A stretch of 64,000 nt of DNA from Nocardioides mesophilus. Lineage in GTDB: Bacteria > Actinomycetota > Actinomycetes > Propionibacteriales > Nocardioidaceae. Every line of letters begins with the position of its first letter. The stretch's first letter is position 1. Shown piece after piece: positions 6,065-18,954 of this stretch. The notes under the pieces are model-generated. The model was not told where the DNA came from and did no database searches. It was given only the letters and a program-made list of their open reading frames with translations. The position numbers and the translations under genes were made by a program. The stretch lies in NCBI RefSeq assembly GCF_014395785.1, contig NZ_CP060713.1:3934501-3998500 (forward strand), read 5' to 3'.

Positions 6065-6239
6065 GGTCTCCACTCCCGAGGGCTCGGGGAACGCACCCGC
6101 GCCCGTCCGTGGCGACGGTAGTGCGCCGGGGTAGGGGCCGCAATGGCACCTCGTCGCGACAGGGCTCGCCCGATCCCCGGCGCCCATGCCGAGCCGATAG
6201 GCCCTTCCAGCCAGGTCCGGGCGTGGCTAGGTTCCAGGC

Positions 6240-6704
6240 ATGAGCATCGACGACATCGGTCCCCGTCCCCAGGCGTTCGACCTGGAGACAGAGACGCTCG
6301 ACAATTCCAACTACCGCACCGTCGTCTGGAGCGGCAGCCATCTGCAGGTGACCCTCATGTCGATCCCGGTCGGCGGCGACATCGGACTCGAGAGACACCC
6401 CGACACCGACCAGTTCATCCGACTCGACCGCGGCCGCGGTCGCGCCCAGATGGGACCGGCCAAGGACGAGCTGACCTTCGACCACGAGGTGAGCGACGGC
6501 TGGTGTGTCCTGGTTCCGGCCGGCAGCTGGCACAACGTGACCAACGTCGGCGAGGAGCCGATGCAGGTCTACACCGTCTACGCGCCGCAGCACCACAAGC
6601 CGGGCAAGGTGCACCAGACCCAGGCGACCGCCGCCGCCGACACCGACGACGAACCCGCCGAGTGGTCGGTCCAACCGCACCCGGTCGCAGACCAGCACGC
6701 CTGA
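6240..6704 (+). CDS. cupin-domain protein
   Basis: 154 residues forming one cupin barrel. Motif 1 is represented by LERHPDTDQFIRLDRGRG, with metal-ligand His and Asp/Gln, and motif 2 by VPAGSWHNVTNVG, with His. The C-terminal tail is acidic and likely disordered. Single cupins like this include mannose-6-phosphate isomerase-like and quercetinase-like proteins; no substrate is predictable. It is convergent with the epimerase gene 22 bp downstream. Confidence 0.82.
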   Translation: MSIDDIGPRPQAFDLETETLDNSNYRTVVWSGSHLQVTLMSIPVGGDIGLERHPDTDQFIRLDRGRGRAQMGPAKDELTFDHEVSDGWCVLVPAGSWHNVTNVGEEPMQVYTVYAPQHHKPGKVHQTQATAAADTDDEPAEWSVQPHPVADQHA

Positions 6705-6726
6705 GCCGAGCGCGCCGGAGCCGCGC

Positions 6727-7632
6727 TCAGCCGTGCTCGGCCCCGGGGTCGGCCAGCACGTCGCGCCAGGAGTGACGCGGGGCGAACCCCAGGAGGTCGC
6801 GTGCCTTGTCGATGGCGTAGAAGGTCTCGTCGCGGCCCATCTCCCGACGCACCTCCACCCCGTCGTAGAAACGGTCCTGGAGCTCCTGGGTCGTCGCAGC
6901 CACCGACAGGTCCGGGTTGGCCACGTTGAAGACCTCGTAGCCCAGACCGTCGGTCTCGAGGCAGCACTGCACCATCTGGCCGAGATCGCGGACGTCGATG
7001 TAGGCGAACAGGTTGCGGCGCCGCAGCGCCGGGTCGTCGAGGAAGGCAGGGAACATCTCGGCGTACTCGTGGGGCTCGATGACGTTGTTGATCCGCAAGC
7101 CATACACGTCGGCACCGGTGCGGGCGTGGAACGAGCGCGCCGTCACCTCGCCGGCGACCTTCGACATCGCGTAGGAGTCCTCGGGGACCGTCGGATGGTC
7201 CTCGTCGACGGGCACGTAGAGCGGGCGGCGCTCGCCCTGGGCGAAGCAGATCCCGTAGGTCGTCTCCGAGGAGGCGAACACGACCTTGCGCACGCCCAAC
7301 CGGGTCGCGGCCTCGAGCACGTTGTAGGTGCTGAGGACGTTCGTCGCGTAGGTCGCCGCGTCCGACGTGAGCAGGATCGCCGGCACCGCGGCGAAGTGCA
7401 CCACGGCGTCGTAGGTGGGCTTCGTCGGCAGGTCCAGCTCCTCGAAGGTCGCCAGGCCGGCCAGCGCAGAGTAGGTCTCACCGGCATCGGTCAGGTCGAC
7501 GCGAAGGTCGGCGACCGCCGGGTGCCCCAGCGGGACGAGGTCGGCGTTGGTGACGTGGTGGCCCTGCTCGGCGAGGTACGGCGCGACGTGCCTGCCGGCC
7601 TTGCCGCTGCCACCGGTGAAGAAGATGCGCAT
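6727..7632 (-). CDS. NAD-dependent epimerase/dehydratase (extended SDR)
   Basis: 301 residues. The N-terminal nucleotide motif TGGSGKAG and an acidic NADL after beta-2 favour NAD. The active-site Ser/Thr is in FASSETTYG, the SYAMSKVAGE motif supplies Tyr and Lys, and the C-terminus is substrate-binding (IEPHEYAEMFPAFL, YAIDKARDLLGF). It resembles UDP-hexose 4-epimerase-like or uronate dehydrogenase-like enzymes. It is not inside a sugar cluster, so the substrate stays open. Confidence 0.87.
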   Translation of the reverse strand: MRIFFTGGSGKAGRHVAPYLAEQGHHVTNADLVPLGHPAVADLRVDLTDAGETYSALAGLATFEELDLPTKPTYDAVVHFAAVPAILLTSDAATYATNVLSTYNVLEAATRLGVRKVVFASSETTYGICFAQGERRPLYVPVDEDHPTVPEDSYAMSKVAGEVTARSFHARTGADVYGLRINNVIEPHEYAEMFPAFLDDPALRRRNLFAYIDVRDLGQMVQCCLETDGLGYEVFNVANPDLSVAATTQELQDRFYDGVEVRREMGRDETFYAIDKARDLLGFAPRHSWRDVLADPGAEHG

Positions 7633-7711
7633 GTGCCTTCATACCCCGAGGGCGTGGGTGGAGTCCCACCGGGCAGGCCCTTCATCGATCGACGGAGGGT
7701 CCGGAGGCGCC

Positions 7712-8893
7712 TCAACGCTGGGTTCTGCTGAACGGCCCCTCGCTGTCGAACACCAGCCGAGCGAACCGCTCGCCGATCTGTTGCTGGGTCTCCGCGTCCG
7801 GGTGCAGCGCGTCCGGAAGAGGCCGCTCTTCGGCGTCTGCGCGTCCGTAGAGCTCGAGACCGTCGAGGTAGCCGAGATGCGGGTCGGTGGCGCTGCGGGC
7901 GCCGACGATGCGAGCCAGCTCGTCGCGGACGACCTGGAGGGTGAGCTTGCCGCTCGCGACCTCGGCGGGGTCACCCGCGGCCCGGAAGCCGAGCCGTCCT
8001 TCGGCGAGACCTGCCGTGTCCATCTCGCTGGGACCCGGCGTCTCTTCGTGGATGGGACACATGATCGGCGAGACGACGAGAAGCGGCGTACTCGGGTGTC
8101 CTTCCCGGATCGTGTCGAGGAATCCGTGGACCGCTGGTGCGAACGCGCGAAGGCGCATCAGGTCGGTGTTGACGAGGTTGATCCCGATCTTCAGGCTGAT
8201 GAGATCAGCGCTGGTGTCGCGGATGACGCGCGCGACGAAGGGATCGAGCAGCGCGCTGCCCCCGAACCCGAGATTGAGCAGCTCGACCCCTCCGAGGGCG
8301 GCTGCGAGGGCCGGCCAGGTGGACGTGGGGCCGGCTGCGTTGGAGCCGTGGCTGATCGAGCTGCCGTGGTGCAGCCACAAGAGACGGCCATGGCCGGACA
8401 GGGGTTCGACCGGGGCGTCCGTCTTGAGCGCCACGAGCTCGGTGCGCTCGTTCCAGGGCAGCCAGACCTCGATCTCCTTGTCGGCGTCGCCAAGATCCCC
8501 GAACTCGATGACCGCCGTCTGGCCGGGGGTGACGTCGGCCGCGCCGCTCGCCATGTCGATCCTCAACGTGTCACCACCGGTCGCGGTCGCGCTCGCGGTC
8601 CTACGCCCGTCGACCTTCAGCTCGTAGACGCCGTCGGGACGCGGCGGTGCGCCCACGTAGACCATCTTGGTGGGCACGGTCTCCACCCGCACGTAGGTGG
8701 CCCGGGAGCGGAAGGCGAGCCGGACTCCGGACGGCTGGGCCTCGGCCATCGCCAGCTGGCCATCGGCGTACTGGCGCGCCGACGCGGGTAGCCGGTGGGG
8801 CAGCACGCCGCGCGAGGTCTGCTCGAGCTCGAGCGCGCCTCTCACGAGGTCCAGCGTGAGAGGTGTCGAGATCAGGTCCGAGATGTCGTCCAC
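7712..8893 (-). CDS. SGNH/GDSL hydrolase with N-terminal beta-sandwich
   Basis: 393 residues from GTG 8893. The first half is a beta-rich domain resembling the jelly-roll of carbohydrate esterase family 2. The second half carries SGNH blocks: HHGSSISHGS (nucleophile Ser), LGFGGSALLDP (block II Gly), LKIGINL (block III Asn) and LPDALHPDAE (block V Asp and His). It probably removes acetyl or other acyl groups from carbohydrate. No signal peptide is evident. Confidence 0.85.
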   Translation of the reverse strand: MDDISDLISTPLTLDLVRGALELEQTSRGVLPHRLPASARQYADGQLAMAEAQPSGVRLAFRSRATYVRVETVPTKMVYVGAPPRPDGVYELKVDGRRTASATATGGDTLRIDMASGAADVTPGQTAVIEFGDLGDADKEIEVWLPWNERTELVALKTDAPVEPLSGHGRLLWLHHGSSISHGSNAAGPTSTWPALAAALGGVELLNLGFGGSALLDPFVARVIRDTSADLISLKIGINLVNTDLMRLRAFAPAVHGFLDTIREGHPSTPLLVVSPIMCPIHEETPGPSEMDTAGLAEGRLGFRAAGDPAEVASGKLTLQVVRDELARIVGARSATDPHLGYLDGLELYGRADAEERPLPDALHPDAETQQQIGERFARLVFDSEGPFSRTQR

Positions 8894-8950
8894 ACGCCAA
8901 GCATGCCTCCCGTTCAGCGGGCAGGGTCGACACCCCCACGGTGTCGCCGG

Positions 8951-10005
8951 CTACGGCAGGTAGCGCCTCGCTCCGTAGAACCCGACCTTCGTCACGGGGA
9001 CCGTCCGCACGCTGCTGCCGGTGTGCGGTGCTTCCACCATCCGCCCGCTGCCGGCGTACATCGTCACGTGGTGGACGACGCCGTTGGTGGCGTAGAACAT
9101 CAGGTCGCCCTTGCGCAGCGACGACCAGGCGACGCGGGTGCCGTGCGCGGCCTGGGCGGAGGCGTCCCGGGGGATCACGATGCCGTGGCTGCGGTAGTCG
9201 AGCCACGTGAGGCCCGAGCAGTCGAGGCCGAACCCGGAGACACCGGCCCACAGGTACGGCAGCCCGGTGAACAGCCGGGCGGTGGGGACGAGGTTCCGGC
9301 GCGTCTGCGGCAGCGCCGGCTTCCCCGGCCGGTGGGTCACCACCGCCCCGACGCGGATCCGGCGGACGGTGCCGAGCGGGGTGACCACCCGGACCGTGTC
9401 GCCCGCGGTGCCGGCCACCGGCAGCACTGTCCCGAAGCTGATCTCGACCAGAGGCGTTGCGGCCGCGGAGTCGCTGCGCAGCCAGGTGGTGCGCTGGGTC
9501 ACGGTGACCACCTTCGGCGTGCTCGGGCGCGGCCGGGCGGTGAGCTGCCGGGTCGGCACCCAGCCCGGGTAGCCGCGGGAGTCCTTGGGCGTGGGCTGGT
9601 CGCGCACGACGACCTTGGCCCACCCGTCACGGAGCCGGACCACGGTGACCCGCTCGCCCATGAGTGCCTGGGTGTCCGCGCGACCGTTTAGCTCACGGCG
9701 CTGCGTCAGCGTCATGTCCGAGAGCCACTGCCGGATCCGCGCCGGCCGAGCCAGAGCCGGTGCGTCGACGGCTCGCGGCGAGGTCCGGCTGCGCCATACC
9801 GTCGCCACCGAGACCGCGACCTGCGCGGGATCACCGACGGTCAGCGCTGGGGAGTACGCCGTGCGGTCGTGGCCACAGCGGCGGTCGCGCCGTCCGGCGT
9901 AGAACCCGATGTCGAGCTCACGGTCCCGGGCGACGAGACGCCGCACGACACCAGCAGCGCGGCGGCCGTGACAGCGCCGAAGAGCGCGCCCACCCTCCTG
10001 TTCAC
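8951..10005 (-). CDS. NlpC/P60 peptidoglycan hydrolase lipoprotein, apparent frameshift
   Basis: Secreted cell-wall endopeptidase. The C-terminal NlpC/P60 domain has catalytic Cys in FGLDCSGLTWLDY and His in GVVHHVTMYAG; before it sit SH3-like repeats (MGERVTVVRLRDGWAKVVV). The enzyme frame has no credible start. The lipoprotein signal VNRRVGALFGAVTAAALL followed by lipobox LVSC is found just upstream in another frame (GTG 10005) and stops at TGA 9841. Adding one C to the CCCC run at 9849-9852 (minus strand) joins the two smoothly as RRTPPALTVGDPAQ. The product would be a roughly 350-residue lipoprotein. This is either a sequencing error or a loss of export. Confidence 0.78.
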
Positions 10006-10055
10006 GTCTCCAGCGTCGGTCCCCGTCCGGGCCCGGCTCAGAGACGAAGGTCATC

Positions 10056-10964
10056 ATGAGCCGGGGCGTACTGCCCGACTCACGGGTGTCGCCCGGGGCC
10101 GCGATCGCCGATGATGGGGTGGTGCTCAGCGACGACCTGGACCACGGCAAAGCCGCCGGACCATCGAGCGACAAGGCGGATGCTCTCCTTGCCCTGCACG
10201 CCGGGCCGGGCTTCGTGCTGCCCAACGCCTGGGATCCCGGCTCCGCCCGCATCCTGGAGCACGTCGGCTTCCCGGCCATCGCCACGACCAGCGCTGGCAT
10301 CGCCTGGTCCTGTGGAGTCCCGGACGGGGGAGTGCTGGACCGCGACACGATGCTCGAGCACATCGGTCGCATCGTGGCCGCAGTGCGTGTTCCGGTGACG
10401 GCCGACCTCGAGGCCGGGTACGGCGACACCGCGGACGAGGTCGGCCGCACCGTGGCGCGCGCCGTCGAGCTCGGGGTCGTGGGCGCCAACGTCGAGGACG
10501 CCGCGCAGGGCGAGCTGTTCGGTATCGACCGGGCGACCGAGCGGATCGCGGCAGCCCGGGCCGCGGCCCGCAGCGGCACCTTCGTGCTGAACGCCCGCAC
10601 TGACGCCTACTTCGTCGGCACGACCGGGGACGTCTTCGCCCAGACGGTCGAGCGGGCTGAGCGGTACTTCGAAGCGGGGGCCGACTGCGTCTTCGTGCCC
10701 GGCGTGGTCGAGGAGGACACCATTGGCCGCCTCGCCGCCGCCCTTCCTGGCCCGCTCAACGTGGTGGCGGGGCTGGCGAACACCATCGATGCCCGCACGC
10801 TCTTCTCGCTCGGCGTCAAACGGGTCAGCCTGGGCGGCAGCCTGGCCCGGGCGGCACTCAGCTTGGTGGAACGAGCGGGCCGGGAGCTGCTCGACTCCGG
10901 AACGCTCGGCTTCCTCGACGGTGCGATCGGCTACGCGGACCTGCAGCGACGCTTCGGCTCGTGA
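10056..10964 (+). CDS. isocitrate lyase/phosphoenolpyruvate mutase superfamily protein
   Basis: 302 residues (270-280 if GTG 10119 or 10122 is the start) forming a PEP-mutase/ICL TIM barrel. Landmarks are FVLPNAWDPGSARILE, TSAGIAWSCG, the metal-binding VTADLEAGYGD, GANVEDAAQ, LNARTDAYF and RVSLGGSLARAAL. The KKCGH catalytic loop of true isocitrate lyases is absent. That fits the broad carboxyphosphonoenolpyruvate-mutase-like group of C-C or P-C bond lyases. It is divergent from the NlpC/P60 gene. Confidence 0.83.
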   Translation: MSRGVLPDSRVSPGAAIADDGVVLSDDLDHGKAAGPSSDKADALLALHAGPGFVLPNAWDPGSARILEHVGFPAIATTSAGIAWSCGVPDGGVLDRDTMLEHIGRIVAAVRVPVTADLEAGYGDTADEVGRTVARAVELGVVGANVEDAAQGELFGIDRATERIAAARAAARSGTFVLNARTDAYFVGTTGDVFAQTVERAERYFEAGADCVFVPGVVEEDTIGRLAAALPGPLNVVAGLANTIDARTLFSLGVKRVSLGGSLARAALSLVERAGRELLDSGTLGFLDGAIGYADLQRRFGS

Positions 10965-11011
10965 CCTGCCCCTTCCACCCGTCTGCGCGACGGATCGGTG
11001 CTGTGCGCGAA

Positions 11012-11869
11012 TCAGACGCTTCCCGCGTGATCGGACGCCAGCACGGTCTCGACAGGGGTGCACGGTAGGTGCGCGACTTCTCGCCGGGCATCGTCGTGTG
11101 CTGGGGCCATGACGTCCATGGCCAGGGCCGCTTCAGCCTGGCGGCCGGGCCTGCCGGGCAGCATCGACGCCAGGCGCAGCGCTCCGGTGGGCACGTGGCG
11201 AGGGTCGCCGGACCAACCATGAACGGCCATGACCCGCGAAGCGAGCTCGGTCAGGGTGAGTCGCTGTGGTCCGGAGATGGTCAGCGTCTTCTGGCGCAGG
11301 GACGCACTCTGGACGGCCCGCACGGTCAGCGCGGACACATCACGCACGGCGACCCAGCCGATCGGGTTGTTCCCGCGCCCGAAGACCAGCGGTCGGTGGG
11401 AGCCTCCTGCCGTGGTGGTGAGCAGGTCGACCCAGAGGTCGGCGAACGCTTCGGGACGGATGATGGTCCATCCGAGGTTCGATCGTCTGAGCACCTGTTC
11501 GGCCTGGTATTTGGCCCGGAACAGTCCCACGCGGCTGTCCGGCGACGCTCCCGCGACGGAGACCAGCACCAGGTCTGCGCCGGCCCGTCCAGCGGCGTCG
11601 GCGAGCACCCTGGTGCCCTGGAGGTCGACCCGGGTCGGCGACACGAAGGGGAAGCCCGTCACGGTTGACACCACCACCTCCACCCCCTCGACGGCTCGAG
11701 CGACGACGGCCGGGTCGCTCACGGAGCCGGCGATCAGCTGCGCGCCGGTGATCTCGGCTGGTGGTGGTCGCTTCCCACGGGCGAGCACCCGGACCTCGTG
11801 ACCGCCGGCGAGGAGGCCGGCCACGACCTGAGCACCGAGCCGACCGGTGCCGCCGGCGACCAGCATCAT
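11012..11869 (-). CDS. NAD(P)-binding atypical SDR / NmrA-like oxidoreductase
   Basis: 285 residues from ATG 11869, overlapping the upstream stop as ATGA. The Rossmann motif VAGGTGRLGAQVV sits at the N-terminus, VRVLARGKR after beta-2 suits NADP, and SVAGASPDSRVGLFRAKYQAE replaces the classical SDR triad. It looks like an NADP-sensing or quinone-reductase-like protein. It is the second gene of a two-gene operon behind the TetR operator at 12300-12319, so it is probably derepressed together with the SnoaL-like gene. Confidence 0.85.
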   Translation of the reverse strand: MMLVAGGTGRLGAQVVAGLLAGGHEVRVLARGKRPPPAEITGAQLIAGSVSDPAVVARAVEGVEVVVSTVTGFPFVSPTRVDLQGTRVLADAAGRAGADLVLVSVAGASPDSRVGLFRAKYQAEQVLRRSNLGWTIIRPEAFADLWVDLLTTTAGGSHRPLVFGRGNNPIGWVAVRDVSALTVRAVQSASLRQKTLTISGPQRLTLTELASRVMAVHGWSGDPRHVPTGALRLASMLPGRPGRQAEAALAMDVMAPAHDDARREVAHLPCTPVETVLASDHAGSV

Positions 11870-12279
11870 GGCGCACCGCCGGTGCCGAGGGTGGCCAGGA
11901 AGTCGTCGGCGGTCAGCTCGTCGCCTGCCACGGGTTCGAGGTAGAACCGGCAGGAGCGGGCCCGGTCGCCGTCGACGCCGAAGATCATCACCCCCCGCAT
12001 CAGGTGCGGTGTGTGATCGCGTCGGGTGCCCCGCATCTCCCACTCGCTCCACACGTGGTCGCCGCTGGTGACCTCATCGACCACCGTGGCTTCCAGGTCG
12101 GGTACCGCAGCCAGGATCGCGGTCCAGTTGCGACGCACCTGCTCGGTGCCCGTGAACCCCCGTGCCGGGTGACACGGCGTCTGGTTGACGTAGTCGGGCG
12201 TGAAGCAGCCGACGATCCGCTCGACATCGTGGGCGTTGGTGGCTTCGAGCACGCGCGCCAGGAATGCAGATCGATCCAT
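11866..12279 (-). CDS. SnoaL-like polyketide cyclase / ester cyclase family
   Basis: 137 residues starting at ATG 12279, preceded by a strong AGGAG site five bases upstream. NTF2-like fold: FLARVLEATNAHDVERIVGCFTPDY, then HVWSEWEMRGTRRDHT, then MIFGVDGDRARSCRFYLEPV. SnoaL-like members close rings or act as small-molecule isomerases. It is the first gene of the operon facing the TetR gene, and its promoter must overlap the operator palindrome. Confidence 0.82.
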   Translation of the reverse strand: MDRSAFLARVLEATNAHDVERIVGCFTPDYVNQTPCHPARGFTGTEQVRRNWTAILAAVPDLEATVVDEVTSGDHVWSEWEMRGTRRDHTPHLMRGVMIFGVDGDRARSCRFYLEPVAGDELTADDFLATLGTGGAP

Positions 12280-12299
12280 GATGACTCCTGCCATACTTC

Positions 12300-12319
12300 G
12301 GATACAGCAAGGTGTATCC
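12300..12319. promoter_or_regulatory. TetR-type operator in divergent promoter region
   Basis: Perfect inverted repeat GGATACA-6 nt-TGTATCC lies in the only gap between the SnoaL-like gene (leftward) and the TetR gene (rightward). A 20-bp, two-fold symmetric site in this position is what a TetR dimer would bind, repressing both directions. The AT-rich arms stand out against the flanks. Confidence 0.72.
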
Positions 12320-12337
12320 AATAGGAGTGTGAGCCGG

Positions 12338-13048
12338 TTGCCAGCCTCCGTCAAGAGTCGCCGCTACGACGTCCGGGGCCGGCGCGCCGCTGCCCTGAGG
12401 CGCCGGGAGGGCATCCTGGCAGCCGGCCGTGAGCTCATGCTGCGCGATGGGTACGCCGCCACCACCGTCGCCTCCATCGCGGCGGCGGCCGCGGTGTCGA
12501 CGGAGACCGTCTACAAGGCCTTCGGCGGCAAGCCCGGCATCGTGCGCGCGCTCTTCCGACAGGCGCTCGACGGGGCCGGGCCCGAGTCCGCCGTGGCACG
12601 CTCAGACCGGCTCCGGGAGGGGGCGACGGGCCATGCGCTGGTTGCCGGGTGGGCGGAGCTGGCCCGCGAGGTGGCGCCGCGCGGCGCGCCACTCGCACTG
12701 CTGCTCCGGGATGCGGCCGGTCATGATCCGAAGGCGCGATCAGTGCTGGACGAGATCGAGCGCACGCGGCTGCTGCGGATGCGCGACAACGCGCGCGCCC
12801 TGGTGGCGACCGGAGACGTCCGTCCCGACCTCAGCCTGCGTGACGTCACCGACGTCCTCTTCGCCGTCTCGTCGGCAGAGTTGTACGAGCTGCTCGTGAT
12901 CCGCCGCGGGTGGTCGAGCCGCAGGTTCGCGCGCTTCCAGCGAGAGACCATGGCAGGCGCGCTCCTGGTCCAGGAGACTGCGGACCCCGCCGGCCAGAGC
13001 CCCACGACGCCCCGGCAAACGGAAAGAGCCCCTCGAGAGGGGCTCTGA
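12338..13048 (+). CDS. TetR/AcrR-family transcriptional regulator
   Basis: About 235 residues. N-terminal TetR HTH: RRREGILAAGRELMLRDGYAAT, then VASIAAAAAVSTETVYKAFGGK. The C-terminal ligand domain is all-helical (LVAGWAELAREV, TDVLFAVSSAELYELLV). Start choice is uncertain. GTG 12329 lies only one base after the AGGAG at 12323-12327, whereas TTG 12338 has normal spacing. It likely represses itself and the divergent SnoaL-like/SDR pair through the palindrome at 12300-12319. Its last codons overlap the original tRNA-operon terminator. Confidence 0.85.
   Translation: MPASVKSRRYDVRGRRAAALRRREGILAAGRELMLRDGYAATTVASIAAAAAVSTETVYKAFGGKPGIVRALFRQALDGAGPESAVARSDRLREGATGHALVAGWAELAREVAPRGAPLALLLRDAAGHDPKARSVLDEIERTRLLRMRDNARALVATGDVRPDLSLRDVTDVLFAVSSAELYELLVIRRGWSSRRFARFQRETMAGALLVQETADPAGQSPTTPRQTERAPREGL
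13025..13046 (-). terminator. original terminator of the tRNA Gly-Cys-Val operon
   Basis: Hairpin AGAGCCCCTC/GAGGGGCTCT followed on the minus strand by TTTCCGTTT. It lies just beyond the displaced tRNA-Val 3' end at 13063, which is where the tRNA operon would have ended before the element inserted. It also serves as the 3' end of the TetR gene, whose stop is inside it. Confidence 0.65.
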
Positions 13049-13062
13049 CCTGCGAGAACTTG

Positions 13063-13108
13063 GTGGGCGATACTGGGTTTGAACCAGTGACCTCTTCCGT
13101 GTCAAGGA
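13063..13108 (-). repeat. attachment site, displaced tRNA-Val 3' fragment
   Basis: 46 bases identical to 18768-18813. It covers the tRNA from the anticodon loop to the acceptor end. Past 13108 the match stops (GATGAACG against GAAGCGCG), so no tRNA can fold here. It marks the far end of the integrated element. Confidence 0.85.
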
Positions 13109-13116
13109 TGAACGAG

Positions 13117-13154
13117 CCGCAGGTCAGCCCCCTCGACAGGCCCCTGACCTGCGG
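13117..13154. repeat. inverted repeat next to the att core
   Basis: CCGCAGGTCAG (13117-13127) and CTGACCTGCGG (13144-13154) form a perfect 11-bp inverted pair. The same 11-mer recurs at 18072, 18266 and 18747 inside the element, and a one-base variant sits on the chromosome side at 13045. Candidate recombinase-binding sites. Confidence 0.6.
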
Positions 13155-13160
13155 TTACCC

Positions 13161-13186
13161 GTTGCATGACGTTGCATGGCGTTGCA
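13161..13186 (+). repeat. three phased GTTGCA repeats
   Basis: GTTGCATGAC, GTTGCATGGC and GTTGCAGG follow each other with an exact 10-bp period, one DNA turn. They lie between the att core and the 25-nt arm-like repeat. This is a protein-binding type of arrangement, perhaps for integrase or excisionase. Confidence 0.5.
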
Positions 13187-13197
13187 GGAAGCTCGCT

Positions 13198-13222
13198 GTC
13201 GTTCCGCATAAATCCCGTATGA
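13198..13222 (+). repeat. left copy of 25-nt end repeat (putative att arm)
   Basis: Starts GTCGTTCCGCA and continues AATCCCGTATGA. 22 of 25 positions match 18670-18694, in the same orientation. It lies 89 bp inside the left att core; the partner lies 73 bp inside the right core. In a circularised element the two would flank the core on opposite sides. Confidence 0.6.
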
Positions 13223-13262
13223 AAAAGGCCCCCGCCGTCCGGGTGCGGCGGACGGCGGGGGC
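13223..13262 (-). terminator. rho-independent terminator for the leftward phage-like genes
   Basis: Perfect 13-bp stem (13228-13240 with 13250-13262, GCCCCCGCCGTCC paired), a nine-base loop, followed on the minus strand by CTTTTTC. It is placed 70 bp after the HNH stop, so it ends the minus-strand operon of the element. Confidence 0.8.
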
Positions 13263-13333
13263 GCCGGGCCCAGGGGTCGAATCCTGTGGCCCGATGTGGG
13301 TAGCGACGAACGTAGGCACCCCCGGGGGAGCCG

Positions 13334-13645
13334 TCAAACGTCGAGCGAGCGGGCGATCGCCCGGCGATAGCCGAGGTGCGCCAGGTCGAAGGCGTACCGG
13401 CTCACGGGCACCGGGTAGAGCGCGGTCACCTCGGCCCAGCTCAGCTTGCCGGCGCGTCGGACGATGAGCCGCAGCAGCTCGTGGGTGTTCGTGTGGGTCG
13501 TCGGGCAGATGAACACGGCGTTCTCGGGGACGTCGGGCCCGCCCATCCCCTTCGGCCAGACGTGGTGGTACTCCAGGTCGAGCGGCTCGGGGGCGTGCGG
13601 CTTGCGGCACACGCACACCTTGCCGACGTCGTCGGGGTTGCTCAC
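13334..13645 (-). CDS. HNH endonuclease, 103 aa
   Basis: Small phage-type HNH nuclease. The start is GTG 13645 with GGAGG six bases upstream, overlapping the preceding stop as GTGA. A zinc-site CVC pair near residue 12 and a later Cys hold the fold. The catalytic His-His is in LEYHHVWPKGMGG, Asn in VPENAVF, and CPTTHTNTHELLR completes the beta-beta-alpha-metal motif. In actinophages such genes often sit next to terminase and help packaging; no terminase is seen here. Last gene of a four-gene leftward operon. Confidence 0.85.
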   Translation of the reverse strand: MSNPDDVGKVCVCRKPHAPEPLDLEYHHVWPKGMGGPDVPENAVFICPTTHTNTHELLRLIVRRAGKLSWAEVTALYPVPVSRYAFDLAHLGYRRAIARSLDV

Positions 13646-13869
13646 AGGTCCTCCAGGCTCGGGACGGTGACGATGTGCTGGGCGAACCACGCGGCGAACG
13701 CGCCCCAGCCCATCAGGAACGCGGCGCGGCCTGCCGGGGTGTCGACGCGCACGACCAGCCGGACGACCTCGGAGAGGGTGCCGCCGGAGCGGGCGCGAAT
13801 CTCGTGGACCTCGTAGGCGATTCCTGCGCCGAACAGGGTCGCCCACACCGCCTCGCGCGGGACGCGCAT
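13642..13869 (-). CDS. small membrane-associated phage protein, 75 aa
   Basis: Starts at ATG 13869, three bases after the previous gene. One hydrophobic stretch (AVWATLFGAGIAYEV) and a second C-terminal one (GRAAFLMGWGAFAAWFAQHI) flank a basic linker, suggesting two membrane passes. Translationally coupled to the HNH gene. Size and position recall the small membrane or holin-like proteins found after tail genes in actinobacterial prophages, but no diagnostic motif is present. Confidence 0.65.
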   Translation of the reverse strand: MRVPREAVWATLFGAGIAYEVHEIRARSGGTLSEVVRLVVRVDTPAGRAAFLMGWGAFAAWFAQHIVTVPSLEDL

Positions 13870-13872
13870 CGG

Positions 13873-14190
13873 TCAGCCCATGTCCTGGTAGATGCGGGTG
13901 ACGAGGTAGTCGCCCGGCGGGAAGGTCTGCGGCTTGGACCCGGGCCAGGTGACCTCGACCTCGGCGACGAGGTCGCCGACGACGTCGGTGTCGCCCGGGA
14001 GCCAGTCCATCTTGACCACCCCGGCGGCGTCGGCCGAGGTGGCGGCGCGGCTGGTCGCGACGGAGTCGCCTGGCTTGAGGAACAGCACCTTCACGGAGCT
14101 CGCCGTGGTCAGGTCGATGGGCGCACCGGCGTCGGTCAGCGTCGCCTGCCACGGCGGCAGCAGGTCGCCGCGCTTGATGTTGTCGGTCAC
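13873..14190 (-). CDS. BppU-like baseplate/tail domain protein, 105 aa
   Basis: Sequence pattern of the N-terminal domain of phage baseplate upper proteins: IKRGDLLPPWQATLTDAGAP, then IDLTTASSVKVLFLKPG, then VVKMDWLPGDTDVVGDLVAEVEV, ending FPPGDYLVTRIYQ. The domain is a small beta sandwich used in receptor-binding baseplates. ATG 14190 overlaps the stop of the repeat protein (ATGA), tying the two together as tail genes. Confidence 0.65.
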   Translation of the reverse strand: MTDNIKRGDLLPPWQATLTDAGAPIDLTTASSVKVLFLKPGDSVATSRAATSADAAGVVKMDWLPGDTDVVGDLVAEVEVTWPGSKPQTFPPGDYLVTRIYQDMG

Positions 14191-15983
14191 GTCGTGGTTC
14201 CTGCCTGGTTCTCTTGGAGGGTCGCGGTGTACGTGGTCGGCTCGAGGACAGCGGTCGCCTGGTTGCGGCTGACGGTCGCCTCGGGGTGCGTGACGATGGC
14301 GTAGGGGAGGTATTTCTCCATCGACACGTCGTCGGTGAGCCCGAGCTGGTCGCCGTAGGTGTCGCGGGTGTCCTGGGCCAGGGCGAACGCGTCGTCCATG
14401 CCGGCGGCGTCGACGATGTCGCGCACCGAGTCGAGGACCATCGTCACCGTGTCGGTGACCCCGGCGGCGTCGGTCGCGTTCACGCCGCGGCCGATGAGGC
14501 TGGTCGTGGAGTCGGTCAGGCCCTCGGCGTCGGTGCGGGCGACGCCGACGCCGATACCGACCGTGGCCGAGTCCGTGAGCCCGGCCGTGTCGGAGACGCC
14601 GAGCGGCCGGGACACGGCGATGGTCGCCGTGTCGGTCAGGCCGATGTCGTCCAGTTGGGGCCGGACGGCGTCGACGGTGCGGGCCGCGGCGTCGGACAGG
14701 CCGAGGTTGTCGGTGGCGGTCTGGCTACCGGACCCGGCGAGCCCGGTGCCGTCGGTGAGCCCGAGGGCGTCGGTGACAGTGACGGCGCGGTCGATCGTGA
14801 CGGCGTCGGTGACCCCGACGGCGTCCGCGGGGGAGACGGCGATCCCGAGGGCGGGGGTCGCGGCGTCGGTGAGCCCGGCCGTGTCTGAGACGACCGCGGC
14901 CCGGTCGACGGTGACGGCGTCTGCGAGGCCCAGGGTGTCGGTGGCCGACTGGGCGCCCGACCCAGCCGTGGACGCCTGGTCGCTGAGGCCGAGGGTGTCG
15001 GCGAGGTGGACGTCCCGGTCGATGGTGACGGCGTCCGTCAGGCCGAGGGCGTCGGTGGGTGCCTGGGCGCCGGACAGCTCGACGGTGGACGCGTCGGAGA
15101 GCCCGACGGTGTCGGTCGGTGCTTGGGTGATGCCCAAGCTGGCGACCGCGGCGTCAGCGAGGCCCAGGGCGTCTGCCTGCGCCTGCGCGACGTCGAGCGC
15201 GGCGGCGTCGGACATGCCCAGGGCGTCGGTGGCGGTCTGGGTGCCGGACCCGGCGCTGGACGCCTGGTCGGTCAGCCCGAGGGCGTCGGTGACCGTGATG
15301 AGGAACGCGCCGGTGGAGCTCGCGGAATCCGTCAGCCCGAGGGCGTCGGTGACCGCGACGACGTGCCCAGCCTCGACGGTGACGGCGTCGGCCAGCCCGG
15401 CGACGTCGTCCTGCGTGCGGCTGAACACGCCGACGGTGGCCGCCGCGTCGGACAGGCCGAGGGCGTCGGTGGGCGCTTGGGCGTAGTCGACGCCGCCGGC
15501 CTTGATGACGGTGAACGTGTCGGCGAGGCCGATCGGCTCGGAGCCGTCGAGGGCGTGCGCCTTGACGGTGCCGGCGTCGGTGAGCCCCGTGGGGTCGTTC
15601 ACGACGGGGTTGGTGCTGCCGCTGATGGTCGCTGCGTCGGCGAGGCCGAGGGCGTCGGCGACGATGACGGCGCGGTCGATGACGACGGCGTCGGCGAGGC
15701 CCACGGTGTCGGCGCTGGTGGCGCCCCGGTCGAGGGCGACGGCATCGGACAGCCCGACCGTGTCCGCGGGCGACTGGGTGTAGCTGACGCTGGTGGCGGT
15801 GGCGATCGTGAACGTGTCCGCGAGGCCCATCGGCTCGGAGCCGTCGAGGGCGTGCGCCTTGACGGTGCCGGCGTCGGACAGGCCCAGCCCGTCGGCGGCG
15901 ACCAGTCCGCGGGTCATGGTCGCGGCGTCGGTCAGGCCCAGCGCGTCGGTGGGCGTCTGGGTGTAAGAGGTGCCGGTGACCAC
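14187..15983 (-). CDS. tail-like protein of about 28 LGLTDA repeats, 5' end missing
   Basis: 598 residues from GTG 15983. About 28 copies of a roughly 20-residue unit with core D-x-LGL(T/S/A)DA, then a unique C-terminus (MEKYLPYAIVTHPEA, TTYTATLQENQ). Such regular acidic repeats suit an extended fibre or tape-like phage structural protein. The repeats continue upstream of the GTG in the same frame to about 16040 and then run into a stop at about 16068 with no start codon or ribosome site. The rightward gene 16058 begins there. The gene is therefore probably truncated. The minus-strand frame is supported by the coupled start of the baseplate-like gene. Confidence 0.72.
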   Translation of the reverse strand: MVTGTSYTQTPTDALGLTDAATMTRGLVAADGLGLSDAGTVKAHALDGSEPMGLADTFTIATATSVSYTQSPADTVGLSDAVALDRGATSADTVGLADAVVIDRAVIVADALGLADAATISGSTNPVVNDPTGLTDAGTVKAHALDGSEPIGLADTFTVIKAGGVDYAQAPTDALGLSDAAATVGVFSRTQDDVAGLADAVTVEAGHVVAVTDALGLTDSASSTGAFLITVTDALGLTDQASSAGSGTQTATDALGMSDAAALDVAQAQADALGLADAAVASLGITQAPTDTVGLSDASTVELSGAQAPTDALGLTDAVTIDRDVHLADTLGLSDQASTAGSGAQSATDTLGLADAVTVDRAAVVSDTAGLTDAATPALGIAVSPADAVGVTDAVTIDRAVTVTDALGLTDGTGLAGSGSQTATDNLGLSDAAARTVDAVRPQLDDIGLTDTATIAVSRPLGVSDTAGLTDSATVGIGVGVARTDAEGLTDSTTSLIGRGVNATDAAGVTDTVTMVLDSVRDIVDAAGMDDAFALAQDTRDTYGDQLGLTDDVSMEKYLPYAIVTHPEATVSRNQATAVLEPTTYTATLQENQAGTTT

Positions 15984-16057
15984 GGGGGTGGCGGCGTCCG
16001 TGAGGCCGAGGTTGTCGGTGGGGGTCTGGGTGCGAGCCGGATCAAGAGGAGGAAGTC

Positions 16058-16195
16058 GTGAAGTACCGATTCAAGGGCCACTGGGCCGATCGGCTGTGGT
16101 GGGAGTCCGGGCGCATCCCCGGCGACTCCCGCGTCGAGCAGGTCAGCTGCGACGCCCACTGGTTCTACTCGATGATGTTGGGGGCTGGGCGATGA
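16058..16195 (+). CDS. tiny protein 1, 45 aa
   Basis: GTG start with an excellent AGGAGG site (16048-16053) five bases upstream. Rich in Trp and other aromatics (GHWADRLWWESGR, AHWFYSMML) with one Cys. No family recognised. First gene of a run of nine short genes in which most stops overlap the next start. Confidence 0.65.
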   Translation: MKYRFKGHWADRLWWESGRIPGDSRVEQVSCDAHWFYSMMLGAGR

Positions 16196-16353
16196 GCCAG
16201 CGCGACGTCTACCGCGCCCTGCGATTCTGGAACGACCTGCGGGCCGTCGGCCGCGCCGCGAGCAGCGGTTCGTCGGCGCCCATCGGTCGCCGGATCGGCC
16301 GCCGCGCCTACGGGCGCCTGACGGGGCGGCTCGCCCGGAGGTTGTTCGGGTGA
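16192..16353 (+). CDS. tiny protein 2, 53 aa, strongly basic
   Basis: Starts in the ATGA overlap with the previous gene. N-terminal helix (MSQRDVYRALRFWNDLR), then an arginine-rich amphipathic C-terminus (GRRIGRRAYGRLTGRLARRL). The net charge is highly positive, suggesting nucleic-acid or membrane binding. No family recognised. Confidence 0.6.
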   Translation: MSQRDVYRALRFWNDLRAVGRAASSGSSAPIGRRIGRRAYGRLTGRLARRLFG

Positions 16354-16559
16354 CTCATTGCTACTTCTGCAGCCGACCCGAGCTGGTCGGCCCCGACGGG
16401 TGCGGGAACTGCGGCGCCCCGGCCGACCCTGACGGCCCGGGCCCGACCAGCCCGACCGTCGAGTGCGCCGGCTGCTCCACCGTCGTCGCCGAGGCCGGCA
16501 CCTCCGGGTGGCGCTTCACGGACGCCCCGTGGTGCCCGAAGTGCGCGTGGCTCGCATGA
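16350..16559 (+). CDS. tiny protein 3, 69 aa, double zinc-ribbon
   Basis: GTG start in a GTGA overlap. Four cysteine pairs: CYFC, CGNC, CAGC and a C-terminal CPKC. Paired CxxC knuckles of this spacing usually bind two zinc ions. No other domain. Function unknown; zinc ribbons in phage early genes often touch DNA or RNA polymerase. Confidence 0.68.
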   Translation: MTHCYFCSRPELVGPDGCGNCGAPADPDGPGPTSPTVECAGCSTVVAEAGTSGWRFTDAPWCPKCAWLA

Positions 16560-17008
16560 CCGCCCGCGACAGGCTCGCCGCGGCCCTGCACCGGCTGAAT
16601 TGCCTGCACCAGCAACACCTCGGCCGGCAGCCAGGGCAGCCGGACGCCGTCGACTACAACGCCGCCGACGCGTTGCTCGCCGGCGACTGGGTCGACCAGC
16701 TCGTCGCCGAGCGGAGGGACGACGCGATCACGTGGGACGTGACGTGCCTGAACTGCGCCCGGCTGCTCGGCCAGCTATACGGCGAGTACGCCCGCGGCTA
16801 CCAGGCCGGGTTCCACGCCCGCGTCGTCGACCCACCCGACCTCCGGCCGCTCCACGTCGGCCGTGACGGCATGGGGAACTGGGAGACGACCTGCCCCACC
16901 CACGGCCCTGTCGCGACCAGCTCGGACTGGTCGGGCGCGATGGAGGCCGCCTGGGGACACATCGCAATGGTGCGACACGACTCGTGGACGGAGGAGTTGG
17001 TCACATGA
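16556..17008 (+). CDS. protein 4 of the tiny-gene run, 150 aa
   Basis: ATG 16556 overlaps the previous stop (ATGA). Helical N-terminus (RDRLAAALHRLNCLHQQH), a middle with CLNC (residues about 63-66), and a C-terminus with CPTHG and a WSGAMEAAWGHI helix. The longest protein of the set. Related-looking hypothetical proteins occur in Streptomyces prophages, but no function is known to me. Confidence 0.65.
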   Translation: MTARDRLAAALHRLNCLHQQHLGRQPGQPDAVDYNAADALLAGDWVDQLVAERRDDAITWDVTCLNCARLLGQLYGEYARGYQAGFHARVVDPPDLRPLHVGRDGMGNWETTCPTHGPVATSSDWSGAMEAAWGHIAMVRHDSWTEELVT

Positions 17009-17181
17009 TCTTTCGCCTGCGGCCGAGGCCGCACCTGGACCTGTTCCGCGCCCGTTGGGCGCCGATCTGGCTGCGCCGCCGGTTCCCCGGCTACTGGACG
17101 CAGGCCGAGGTCGACGACATCGAGCGCCGCGCCCACGAGGACTGGGCCCGATTCCGGCACCTGTTCGACGACGAGGAATGA
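17005..17181 (+). CDS. tiny protein 5, 58 aa
   Basis: ATG 17005 in an ATGA overlap. Basic N-terminus (FRLRPRPHLDLFRARW) and acidic helical C-terminus (EVDDIERRAHEDWARFRHLFDDEE). No cysteines, no signal peptide. Family not recognised. Confidence 0.6.
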   Translation: MIFRLRPRPHLDLFRARWAPIWLRRRFPGYWTQAEVDDIERRAHEDWARFRHLFDDEE

Positions 17182-17182
17182 C

Positions 17183-17338
17183 ATGAAGCTCATCTATGAC
17201 AGCCGACCCACCAGCCCGCGCTACCCGCACGGCTACTGGTACGCCTGCACCGGTGACGGCAAATATGACGCCGCCGGGCCCGACCCGTTGACGGCGATCA
17301 CCCGGCTCCTCCAGGTGCTGGAGGAAGCGCTCAAGTGA
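17183..17338 (+). CDS. tiny protein 6, 51 aa
   Basis: ATG 17183, one base after the previous stop. Reads MKLIYDSRPTSPRYPHGYWY, then a short DGKYDAAGPDPLTAI turn and a C-terminal helix ITRLLQVLEEALK. Compact alpha+beta look; the pattern of a strand followed by a helix resembles HicB-like antitoxin cores, but it is too short to call. Confidence 0.58.
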   Translation: MKLIYDSRPTSPRYPHGYWYACTGDGKYDAAGPDPLTAITRLLQVLEEALK

Positions 17339-17601
17339 AGGGGGTGAGGGTCTGCCGAACCTGCGGTCACGCCCTGACCGACCAGGAGCGCGATGCCTAC
17401 GTGGACCAGTGCGGGCCCTGCGTCTGGGTGAAGGACGAGGAGGAGCAGCCGCCGCGGCACCGCATCCGCTCCCACTTGGCGCTGCTGGACTTCGGCCCCA
17501 GCTGCTACGCGCCCGACTGTCCGGCGTGCCGGTGGTACCGCGCCCGCGGCGGCTGGGCCCATGACGACTCGATGGAGGGGTGGCTCGATGGTCAGCGGTG
17601 A
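17335..17601 (+). CDS. tiny protein 7, 88 aa, zinc-finger
   Basis: GTG in a GTGA overlap. CRTCGH and CGPC form one knuckle pair; CYAPDCPAC forms another. A DQERDAY helix lies between them. C-terminal region ends in acidic/Trp-rich WAHDDSMEGWLDG. Unknown function; one of four Cys-knuckle proteins in this operon. Confidence 0.62.
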   Translation: MKGVRVCRTCGHALTDQERDAYVDQCGPCVWVKDEEEQPPRHRIRSHLALLDFGPSCYAPDCPACRWYRARGGWAHDDSMEGWLDGQR

Positions 17602-17782
17602 ATCGTGGGCACGCAGGCACGCCCGCGAGAACCCCGGCCACCTGAGCCGCGAGGGGCTGGACGACCCGGGATCGTGTGCCGACTGTCGCGAGCGGTCACC
17701 CATCTACGACCTCCCGCACCTGGTCGTCCGGCGTGCCCGGTGGTACCGCGCCTGGCTCGCACGCGTGGAGGACGACGCGTGA
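17588..17782 (+). CDS. tiny protein 8, 64 aa
   Basis: ATG 17588, overlapping the previous gene by 14 bp. Basic N-terminus (SWARRHARENPGHLSREGL), a CADC pair, then a helix RRARWYRAWLARVEDD. Not recognised. The single CxxC could complete a zinc site with His residues or by dimerisation. Confidence 0.58.
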   Translation: MVSGESWARRHARENPGHLSREGLDDPGSCADCRERSPIYDLPHLVVRRARWYRAWLARVEDDA

Positions 17783-17919
17783 AGCCGCGCATCCGAGTCG
17801 GGCGGTTGACGGTCTGGCTGTGGTCTGGCTCATGGTCATGGGTTGACCGCCTGGACTGCGCCCACTGCCGAAACATCTACGTGGGGCCGTTCGGCGTCGA
17901 GTGGGAGCGCCCCGGCTGA
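17779..17919 (+). CDS. tiny protein 9, 46 aa
   Basis: GTG in a GTGA overlap. Trp-rich strand region (LTVWLWSGSWSW) followed by CAHC. Last gene of the plus-strand run; downstream is the CACCTG array with no further credible gene on this strand. Confidence 0.58.
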   Translation: MKPRIRVGRLTVWLWSGSWSWVDRLDCAHCRNIYVGPFGVEWERPG

Positions 17920-18020
17920 AGACCCCGGCCCGCCGGTGGGAGGGCGCTGCGCGAAAGGCTGGCCGCGCGGCACGCCCGGGGAAGCCCGCCGGCGGGCCGG
18001 TCACCTGTGACATGACCCCC

Positions 18021-18106
18021 CACACCTGCGACACGCACCTGCACACCTGTCACTCGAAAGTCGGCAGCCCTCTGACCTGCGGGTTTGCCGTCCGATCTGG
18101 GGGATT
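18021..18106 (+). repeat. 86-bp direct repeat, copy A
   Basis: About 71 of 86 positions match 18215-18300. Conserved blocks are the CACACCTGCGACACGCACCT start, CGAAAGTCG, CTGACCTGCGG and TTTGCCGTCCGA. Embedded in the CACCTG array. Confidence 0.72.
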
Positions 18107-18214
18107 ACCTCGCCCACACCTGCCACCACCTGTGACACACCTGCGACACCTGCCACCACACCTGGCGCGCACCTGCTGCGGCTCCCGCCGGGCTCGCACC
18201 TGGCGCACGCACTG

Positions 18215-18300
18215 CACACCTGCGACACGCACCTGCACACCGGGGAGACGAAAGTCGCCGAGGCGCTGACCTGCGGTTTTGCCGTCCGACTTGGGGGGTT
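18215..18300 (+). repeat. 86-bp direct repeat, copy B
   Basis: Partner of copy A, 194 bp downstream. Differences are confined to two short blocks (after GCACACC and after AAAGTCG), so the conserved blocks look selected, as expected for binding sites. Confidence 0.72.
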
Positions 18301-18367
18301 GCGTCGTCCACACCTGCTCGCACCTGGCGCACACCTGCGACACCGGGCGCGGCACCTGCGACGGGGC

Positions 18368-18553
18368 TCAGCTGGCGCGGCGCCGGCGTCGCTGGCCGCG
18401 CCAGCCGGCGACCAGCCCCTCGACCCGGGCCCAGCACCGGGCGCACGCCTCGCCCTCGAGCTCGACCCCGTCCACCGTCATCTCGTGCGTCCGCACGTCA
18501 CCCTCGACGCCGCAGCCGTCGCACACCAGGGTGACACTCTCACGTGTAGCCAT
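18368..18553 (-). CDS. small zinc-ribbon protein, 61 aa
   Basis: ATG 18553. VTLVCDGCGVEGDVRTHEMT, then VDGVELEGEACARCW and a basic tail (GWRGQRRRRRAS). Two CxxC pairs predict one zinc. The strand pattern VTLV...VDG resembles the N-terminal dimerisation domain of Lsr2-like nucleoid proteins with cysteines added; that is inference only. It is transcribed towards the CACCTG array, which begins 10 bp past its stop, so it could be the array's binding protein. Confidence 0.65.
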   Translation of the reverse strand: MATRESVTLVCDGCGVEGDVRTHEMTVDGVELEGEACARCWARVEGLVAGWRGQRRRRRAS

Positions 18554-18669
18554 GGGGCAATCCTGCCCCGGTCCGGGCGATCCGTCCTCACTTCCGGCCG
18601 GTCCGCGGCCACAGGCCCCGCCAGGGGCTCCAGGGGCACCCCCGGGGGTCGGCGCTCCGATTTCTCGGC

Positions 18670-18694
18670 GTCGTTCCGCACTAATCCCGTACGA
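18670..18694 (+). repeat. right copy of 25-nt end repeat (putative att arm)
   Basis: GTCGTTCCGCACTAATCCCG and on to TACGA; 22 of 25 match to 13198-13222, same orientation. Lies between the zinc-ribbon gene and the terminator, in otherwise gene-free DNA. Confidence 0.6.
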
Positions 18695-18712
18695 GCCTGC
18701 CCTGGAACGCAG

Positions 18713-18740
18713 AATCGCCCCCGCCGAAGCGGGGGCGATT
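18713..18740 (-). terminator. element-borne terminator downstream of tRNA-Val
   Basis: Perfect 12-bp stem AATCGCCCCCGC/GCGGGGGCGATT with a four-base loop. It is 29 bp past the tRNA-Val 3' end on the minus strand and so replaces the terminator at 13025-13046 that integration moved 5.7 kb away. No strong U tract, but the stem is very stable. Confidence 0.65.
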
Positions 18741-18767
18741 GTGTGTCTGACCTGCGGTTTTGTCTCT

Positions 18768-18813
18768 GTGGGCGATACTGGGTTTGAACCAGTGACCTCT
18801 TCCGTGTCAAGGA
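18768..18813 (-). repeat. attachment site within intact tRNA-Val
   Basis: Second copy of the 46-bp direct repeat, here forming the 3' part of a complete tRNA gene. The element supplied this 3' part on integration, which restores the tRNA. Confidence 0.85.
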
Positions 18814-18840
18814 AGCGCGCTACCACTGCGCCAATCGCCC
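18769..18840 (-). tRNA. tRNA-Val(GAC)
   Basis: 72-nt cloverleaf: acceptor GGGCGAT pairs with ATCGCCC, D arm GCGC, anticodon stem CTTCC/GGAAG around TTGACAC (anticodon GAC), T arm ACTGG/CCAGT with TTCAAAC, discriminator A. Third gene of a Gly-Cys-Val operon and target of the integrated element. Confidence 0.95.
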
Positions 18841-18883
18841 GTGACGACCCAAACTCCCACATGATGGGGTGATCGGGCAATCG

Positions 18884-18954
18884 AGGTGGAGACGGGATTT
18901 GAACCCGTGTAGACGGATTTGCAGTCCGTTGCCTCGCCTCTCGGCCACTCCACC
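18884..18954 (-). tRNA. tRNA-Cys(GCA)
   Basis: About 71 nt: acceptor GGTGGAG/CTCCACC, anticodon loop CTGCAAA (GCA), T loop TTCAAAT. Middle gene of the operon, 43 bp upstream of tRNA-Val. Confidence 0.95.

What the first reader, a model, noticed from the sequence alone, without database searches (positions are those of the whole stretch)
13063..18813. A 5.7-kb element in tRNA-Val with perfect att repeats but no recombinase
Seen: 46-bp identical direct repeats, one inside a complete tRNA-Val(GAC), the other an orphan 3' fragment. Between them are phage-like genes, nine tiny genes and repeat arrays, but no integrase, excisionase, Rep, primase, terminase or capsid. Known: tyrosine recombinases commonly target tRNA 3' halves. 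Inference: this is either a decayed prophage or a mini-satellite mobilised by a helper's integrase. The exact repeats and intact-looking small genes favour something recent.
Basis: partly seen in the sequence, partly recalled or inferred. Interest (0 to 1): 0.75.

Follow-up and report, generated by a model that had tools for sequence, protein, structure and literature searches.

The report
Integrase-less prophage relic in tRNA-Val
A 5.7-kb piece of DNA really did insert into a tRNA gene of this bacterium, and it is most likely the shrunken, stranded remains of a larger phage that has lost the enzyme it used to jump; that is a common fate, though its landing sites are unusually well preserved.

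Summary
A perfect 46-bp direct repeat (13063-13108, 18768-18813) bounds 5.7 kb beside a complete tRNA-Val(GAC). A same-genus genome shows the unfilled site, so this is an insertion. Six other family genomes carry different elements at this tRNA. Each encodes a tyrosine integrase 16-119 bp from the tRNA core; this element has none and no detectable remnant.

New here: both ends keep an attP-like layout. A 25-nt direct repeat (22/25 identical) lies at 13198 and 18670; its pattern occurs only there in the 4.49-Mb genome at up to 3 mismatches. Five of the genome's 20 CTGACCTGCGG copies lie in the element, two placed as in the roughly 51-kb elements of G247 and G292. The 598-aa repeat ORF has no ATG/GTG/TTG start for its upstream repeats, which run up to the ribosome-binding site of the divergent nine-gene operon. 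I read that as a deletion junction.

No relative of the unit was found in the phage, plasmid, IMG/VR and family-genome searches made, which covered part of its genes. Best reading: a heavily deleted prophage with preserved att sites, CIME-like but phage-derived. A helper-dependent mini-satellite is not excluded; nothing shows recurrence or movement.

The parts
18768..18840 (-). complete tRNA-Val(GAC), the integration target; its 3' 46 bp are the att core
   Evidence: ARAGORN; Rfam
18768..18813 (.). att core copy inside the tRNA gene
13063..13108 (.). orphan att core copy (3' part of the tRNA only)
13025..13046 (-). hairpin with T-run that belongs to the native 3' flank of the tRNA, now cut off from it by the element
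   Evidence: alignment to G003
13198..13222 (+). arm-like 25-nt direct repeat, left copy
18670..18694 (+). arm-like 25-nt direct repeat, right copy (22/25 identical)
13117..13154 (.). inverted pair CCGCAGGTCAG / CTGACCTGCGG beside the orphan core
18747..18757 (+). CTGACCTGCGG beside the tRNA-side core; two more copies at 18072 and 18266 inside the array
18713..18740 (.). GC-rich palindrome that could serve as the tRNA terminator supplied by the element (not listed by the terminator scan, no T-run)
   Evidence: read by eye
13228..13262 (-). terminator-like hairpin after the minus-strand operon
13334..13645 (-). HNH endonuclease
   Evidence: PF01844 over cut-off
13642..13869 (-). 75-aa protein, DUF7427 match below cut-off
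13873..14190 (-). 105-aa phage-like protein (phrog_1627, unknown function)
14187..16033 (-). repeat protein, 5'-truncated: listed ORF 14187-15983 (phrog_12240); the repeats and the open frame continue upstream without an ATG/GTG/TTG
16030..16057 (.). inferred deletion junction between the repeat gene and the leader of the small operon
   Evidence: inference
16058..17919 (+). nine small genes (45, 53, 69, 150, 58, 51, 88, 64, 46 aa), 7 of 8 junctions overlapping, no known family
   Evidence: family scans 10, 18, 57, 58, 59
18000..18370 (+). iteron-like array: 17 CACCTG on one strand, 9 of 16 spacings 9-13 bp, two 144-bp units 80% alike
18368..18553 (-). 61-aa Cys-containing protein with a basic tail (phrog_17873, E 1.3e-4, unknown function)

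Best explanation
A temperate phage integrated by its own tyrosine integrase into the 3' end of tRNA-Val(GAC). It rebuilt the tRNA with its attP copy of the core and pushed the native 3' flank to the far end. It then lost most of its genome. What is left is the end of a late-type minus-strand operon next to the orphan att, an early-type operon of nine small genes, an iteron-like array, and both attP ends with arm-like repeats. One deletion appears to join the repeat gene to the leader of the small operon. The integrase, expected beside the tRNA, was lost in another event. The relic should be stranded unless an integrase of matching specificity arrives; the preserved att sites could then let it be excised or carried along. 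Shown: insertion, att repeats, arm-like repeats, missing integrase, missing start of the repeat gene. Inferred: phage ancestry of the whole unit, the deletion history, any remaining mobility.
For: Unfilled site: window 12991-13108 aligns next to the tRNA in same-genus G003. Without the 46-bp core, the 74-nt flank is identical in 59 of 78 columns in G003, against 42-48 of 82-92 in four genomes without an alignable flank; shorter native flanks agree in G028 (32 of 43), G010 (36 of 44) and G029 (18 of 25). Six other family genomes have elements at this tRNA with an integrase 16-119 bp from the core (five of the six confirmed as PF00589, the sixth is 99% identical to one of them). No integrase remnant: best E inside the element 0.10 over six queries, while the control, a split integrase elsewhere in this genome, scores 1e-16. 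Arm-like repeat 22/25 at both ends (0 of 400 Markov resamples, best 19; 0 of 400 random window pairs, best 21) and its pattern found only at the two ends genome-wide. CTGACCTGCGG 5 of 20 genome copies, placed as in G247/G292. HNH and phage-family matches. Repeat frame open upstream without a start codon.
Against: The small operon shows no broken gene and normal GC3, so decay of what remains is not visible. The place where an integrase is expected holds another gene and an array rather than debris, so at least two events are needed. No intact parent was found: seven proteins and the element DNA against phages, four proteins against IMG/VR, element DNA and two proteins against 341 family genomes. 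The only phage hits were generic HNH matches. Phage ancestry rests on three proteins, two in families of unknown function. One random pair of window segments reached 21/25, so the arm repeat is not overwhelming by that control alone. In three of the six same-genus genomes (G001, G004, G005) and in G021 the left flank does not align beyond the core; G002 ends inside the tRNA cluster and G006 was not fetched.
Confidence: 0.72

Rival explanations
1. A true mini-satellite: an element that normally lacks an integrase and borrows that of a phage using the same tRNA-Val site. The CACCTG array would be its replication origin or packaging signal and the nine small genes its regulators.
For: Perfect core repeat and both arm-like repeats kept; the orphan-side inverted pair has the placement seen in the roughly 51-kb elements of G247 and G292; overlapping small genes without visible decay; a striking one-strand array. 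Integrase-less satellites are discussed in print (PMC10690885, passages).
Against: No recurrence in the family searches: (weak, only 2 candidates per genome scored). Arm pattern absent, as an exact match, from viral contigs and genome contigs, and no other copy in the host. Its arms differ from the repeats read by eye beside the core in G247/G292. The missing start of the repeat gene is hard to explain in a maintained element. No PF04860 portal in the host, but this test is blunt: the G291 portal gene is not matched by Pfam either.
Confidence: 0.13
2. A relic of a non-phage integrative element (small actinobacterial conjugative element or island) at this tRNA, with a few phage-like genes picked up.
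For: G191 has an 8.8-kb element at the same tRNA with integrase and a pSAM2-type replication initiator (PF20199, E 3.8e-134), so non-phage elements do use this site. CIMEs are common relics of this kind (PMC7563491, passages).
Against: No replication, transfer or mobilisation gene in the family scans; the orphan-side att layout resembles G247/G292 and not G191 or G148; HNH and two phage-family proteins.
Confidence: 0.12
3. No insertion: a partial tRNA duplication or an assembly artefact.
For: Close copies of the tRNA core occur in some relatives.
Against: Unfilled site in G003, arm-like repeats just inside both cores, other elements bounded in the same way, one complete contig.
Confidence: 0.03

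Closest known systems
Cryptic (defective) prophage in a tRNA gene
   Same: tRNA 3'-end target, direct att repeats, phage-type genes, lost recombinase and structural modules
   Different: Reduced to 5.7 kb with core and arm-like repeats intact; no relative of the parent phage found in the searches made
CIME (cis-mobilizable element; PMC7563491, passages)
   Same: Decayed element that kept its att sites and lost all recombination genes; size within the 1.2-13 kb given there for classical CIMEs
   Different: CIMEs derive from ICEs or IMEs and are tracked there in tandem with them; this one carries phage-type traces and stands alone
PICMI phage satellites (PMC10803314, passages)
   Same: Very small chromosomal element of largely unknown small genes
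   Different: PICMIs carry integrase, AlpA and primase; none of these was matched here
Streptomyces satellites MulchRoom and MiniFlayer (PMC10690885, passages)
   Same: Actinobacterial host group; MiniFlayer has no integrase; HNH gene near one end
   Different: Those are packaged satellites with structural genes; this is a chromosomal insert with no structural module and no sign of packaging

Membership tests
tRNA-targeted integrated element | direct repeat of the tRNA 3' end bounding the insert | tested here: met
tRNA-targeted integrated element | unfilled site in relatives | tested here: met
   G003; short flanks also in G010, G028, G029
Cryptic prophage | phage-type genes inside | tested here: met
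   HNH, phrog_1627, phrog_12240; two of the three families have no known function
Cryptic prophage | broken or deleted modules relative to an intact parent | tested here: inconclusive
   start-less repeat gene and missing integrase, but no intact parent found
CIME | att sites kept, recombination genes lost | tested here: met
CIME | derived from an ICE or IME | tested here: not met
   no replication, relaxase or transfer family matched; so CIME-like only
Phage satellite of PICMI type | integrase, AlpA and primase genes | tested here: not met
Phage satellite (any) | recurrence as a bounded unit in other genomes | tested here: not met
   on 341 genomes, one per species; other strains of this species were not available
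Phage satellite (any) | packaging and transfer by a helper phage | not testable with these tools
   needs virion DNA or induction

The most novel reading that the evidence does not exclude
An actinobacterial mini-satellite that has dispensed with its own integrase: it keeps only attP ends (core, arm repeats, CTGACCTGCGG pair) matched to tRNA-Val(GAC) phages, an iteron-like array as origin or packaging site, and a small regulatory operon, and it is moved in trans by the integrase of a passing phage.
Probability: 0.12. Interest if true: 0.7.

Novelty: new member of a known kind. Interest (0 to 1): 0.32.

Why it matters
It shows how far a prophage can shrink while its attachment sites survive, and it gives a well-defined pair of att ends (core, arm repeats, inverted pair) for asking whether att-only relics can still be recombined by the integrase of a phage that uses the same tRNA. 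If it did move in trans it would be a very reduced integrase-less satellite in Actinomycetota. As it stands it is an ordinary kind of relic with a well documented insertion site.

Tried and rejected
Chance repeat or simple tRNA duplication: rejected by the unfilled site in G003. Resident helper: no PF04860 portal in the host, but the test is blunt because the G291 portal gene is matched by phrog_10963 and not by Pfam; the arm pattern occurs nowhere else in the genome. The integrase at 3.05 Mb of this genome is a homologue of the tRNA-Val integrases (30% identity), but its fetched locus has no arm match at up to 4 mismatches. Integrase debris in the element: none. My first reading rested on a cut output that showed one of six queries; one search gives all six. 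Relatives of the genes: the G158 hit and the best of the hits (G306) were read in context and judged chance hits in ordinary chromosomal DNA; the other 12 non-host hits were not read in context. CTGACCTGCGG as purely an integrase arm: weakened, because native flanks of this tRNA in many relatives carry a similar string. A nested older island to the left: no further core fragment; about 18 kb there do not align with G003, and the long ORFs look chromosomal (by eye).
Full report
Observation. The repeat is real and exact: 46 bp at 13063-13108 and 18768-18813. The right copy is the 3' part of a complete tRNA-Val(GAC) on the minus strand; the left copy is an orphan followed by unrelated sequence. 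With exact 14-mer seeds, the only other place in the window and in 12.5 kb to its left is the tRNA-Val(CAC) gene with 4 mismatches.

It is an insertion. In same-genus genome G003, window 12991-13108 aligns directly next to the tRNA and its right-hand flank. Since that alignment includes the core, I checked the flank alone: 59 of 78 columns identical in G003, against 42-48 of 82-92 in four genomes whose flank did not align (G001, G004, G005, G021). Shorter native flanks agree in G028 (32 of 43), G010 (36 of 44) and G029 (18 of 25). So the hairpin at 13025-13046 belongs to the tRNA, and the element now separates the two. The element brings a GC-rich palindrome of its own at 18713-18740 (read by eye; not listed by the terminator scan). 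Further left, about 18 kb do not align with G003; the long ORFs there look chromosomal (by eye).

The same site elsewhere. A 40-base piece of the core with up to 1 mismatch was searched in 341 genomes of the family: 282 had a match, and 16 including the host had two or more. Of the 15 others I fetched regions for 10 and not for G176, G190, G204, G272 and G353; of G312 one of two places was fetched. Among the 10, G247, G291 and G292 (about 49-52 kb), G148 (about 12 kb) and G191 (8.8 kb) have an orphan and a tRNA copy on one contig; G336 has them on two contigs; G218, G253 and G359 have only complete tRNA copies; the fetched G312 copy is complete. All six element-bearing genomes have a tyrosine integrase beside the tRNA: five of these proteins match PF00589 over its cut-off, and the sixth (G292) is 99% identical to that of G247, so these two count as one lineage. 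The genes end 16-119 bp from the core. G291 has a portal gene (phrog_10963, E 2.3e-99) and is a prophage. One long ORF of G247 matches a phage family of unknown function. G191 carries a pSAM2-type replication initiator (PF20199) and is not a phage. G247 appears to be Pimelobacter simplex ATCC 6946: the pattern hit lies on a contig of the same length (841085).

The window element has no such gene. Family scans of its proteins gave no recombinase: PHROGs saw 14 of 14 proteins, and Pfam, PADLOC and NCBIfam 10 of 14 each. The six tRNA-Val integrases were searched, filters off, against all six-frame segments of 12900-18900. The best E was 0.045, outside the element, and 0.10 inside it; the same search finds the split integrase of this genome at tRNA-Thr at 1e-16.

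The att ends look complete. A 25-nt direct repeat, 22/25 identical, sits at 13198-13222 and 18670-18694, that is 89 and 73 bp from the cores. None of 400 Markov resamples reached it (best 19), and none of 400 random pairs of window segments (best 21). With up to 3 mismatches its 22-base pattern occurs at these two places only in the genome; exact matches are absent from viral contigs and genome contigs. CTGACCTGCGG occurs 20 times in 4.49 Mb, the reversed control 12 times; 5 of the 20 lie in the element. Beside the orphan core, CGCAGGTCAG begins at base 10 in the window, in G247 and in G292; CTGACCTGCGG follows at base 36 in the window and 35 in the other two; G336 has a degenerate version, and G148 and G191 do not show it. 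Against a pure arm-site reading, native flanks of this tRNA in many relatives carry a similar string.

Gene content. Minus strand, reading toward the orphan att: repeat protein, 105-aa protein, 75-aa protein, HNH nuclease, terminator-like hairpin. Plus strand, reading toward the tRNA: nine small genes with GC3 0.85-0.93, 7 of 8 junctions overlapping. Then an array with 17 CACCTG on one strand within 371 bp (0.4 expected), 9 of 16 spacings being 9-13 bp, in two 144-bp units, and a 61-aa gene. The repeat ORF looks truncated: its frame and its repeats continue upstream of the listed GTG to about 16030, with no ATG, GTG or TTG before the next stop, and no ribosome-binding site is seen before the GTG. 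The repeats end about ten bases before the ribosome-binding site of the small operon. I take this as the join left by a large deletion. In G247 two long ORFs near the orphan att also read toward it.

No relatives. tblastn of seven element proteins against 50,697 phage records: six without a match, and the HNH protein with generic HNH matches in enterobacterial phages. blastn of the whole element against phages and of 16040-18767 against plasmids: no match. IMG/VR scans with four proteins: none confirmed. Family-wide searches with the element DNA (weak, since 2 candidates per genome were scored), the 105-aa protein and the 150-aa protein gave only weak hits. The two that I read in context look like chance.

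Mechanism. Shown: integration at the tRNA across the 46-bp core, preserved core and arm-like repeats, absence of an integrase. Inferred: a phage ancestor, an internal deletion near 16030-16057, separate loss of the integrase, and a relic that could still serve as a substrate if a matching integrase arrives. The unselected orphan core is unchanged over 46 bp, which fits a fairly recent event but sets only a loose bound.

Comparison. CIMEs are described as decayed ICEs or IMEs that kept att sites but not all their recombination genes, classical ones 1.2-13 kb long (PMC7563491, passages). The state is the same, but the traces here are of phage type, so I call it CIME-like only. PICMI satellites carry integrase, AlpA and primase (PMC10803314, passages), none of them matched here. 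A paper on Streptomyces satellites says that integrase-less satellites found in bacterial chromosomes likely are inactivated ones, while integrase-less ones also occur in virion DNA (PMC10690885, passages); that is the opening left for the satellite reading. All other papers were seen only in search listings. I make no claim about what is or is not in print on this element.

Verdict: real, well bounded, and probably an extreme prophage relic. A trans-mobilised mini-satellite is a minority reading, about 0.12.

Noticed in passing
window 18000-18370: Iteron-like array of 17 CACCTG on one strand, 9 of 16 spacings 9-13 bp, in two 144-bp units that also share a CTGACCTGCGG module; could be an origin, an operator or a packaging site.
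   Followed up: partly
L082 2352-11173 (G191): An 8.8-kb element at the same tRNA with integrase and a pSAM2-type replication initiator (PF20199), probably a small actinobacterial conjugative element or its relative.
   Followed up: partly
G353 C1:1512417-1513933; also G176, G190, G204, G272: Two to four copies of the tRNA-Val(GAC) core within about 330-590 bp of each other; possible tandem tRNA duplications.
   Followed up: no
L050 about 5900-18000 (host genome): Several tyrosine recombinase genes clustered around a tRNA-Pro(GGG); one of the genome's 20 CTGACCTGCGG copies lies just beside that tRNA.
   Followed up: no
L052 3458-4508 (host genome): An integrase split over two frames beside tRNA-Thr(CGT), another integration relic.
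   Followed up: partly
native 3' flanks of tRNA-Val(GAC) in several family genomes: A recurring CTGACCTGCG-like string about 18-21 nt beyond the tRNA 3' end, next to a hairpin; several elements at this site carry a similar string.
   Followed up: partly
host genome about 3929174-3947490 (left of and into the window): About 18 kb between the native tRNA-Val flank and the next DNA that aligns with G003, where G003 has about 4.4 kb; ordinary-looking genes, origin not examined.
   Followed up: no
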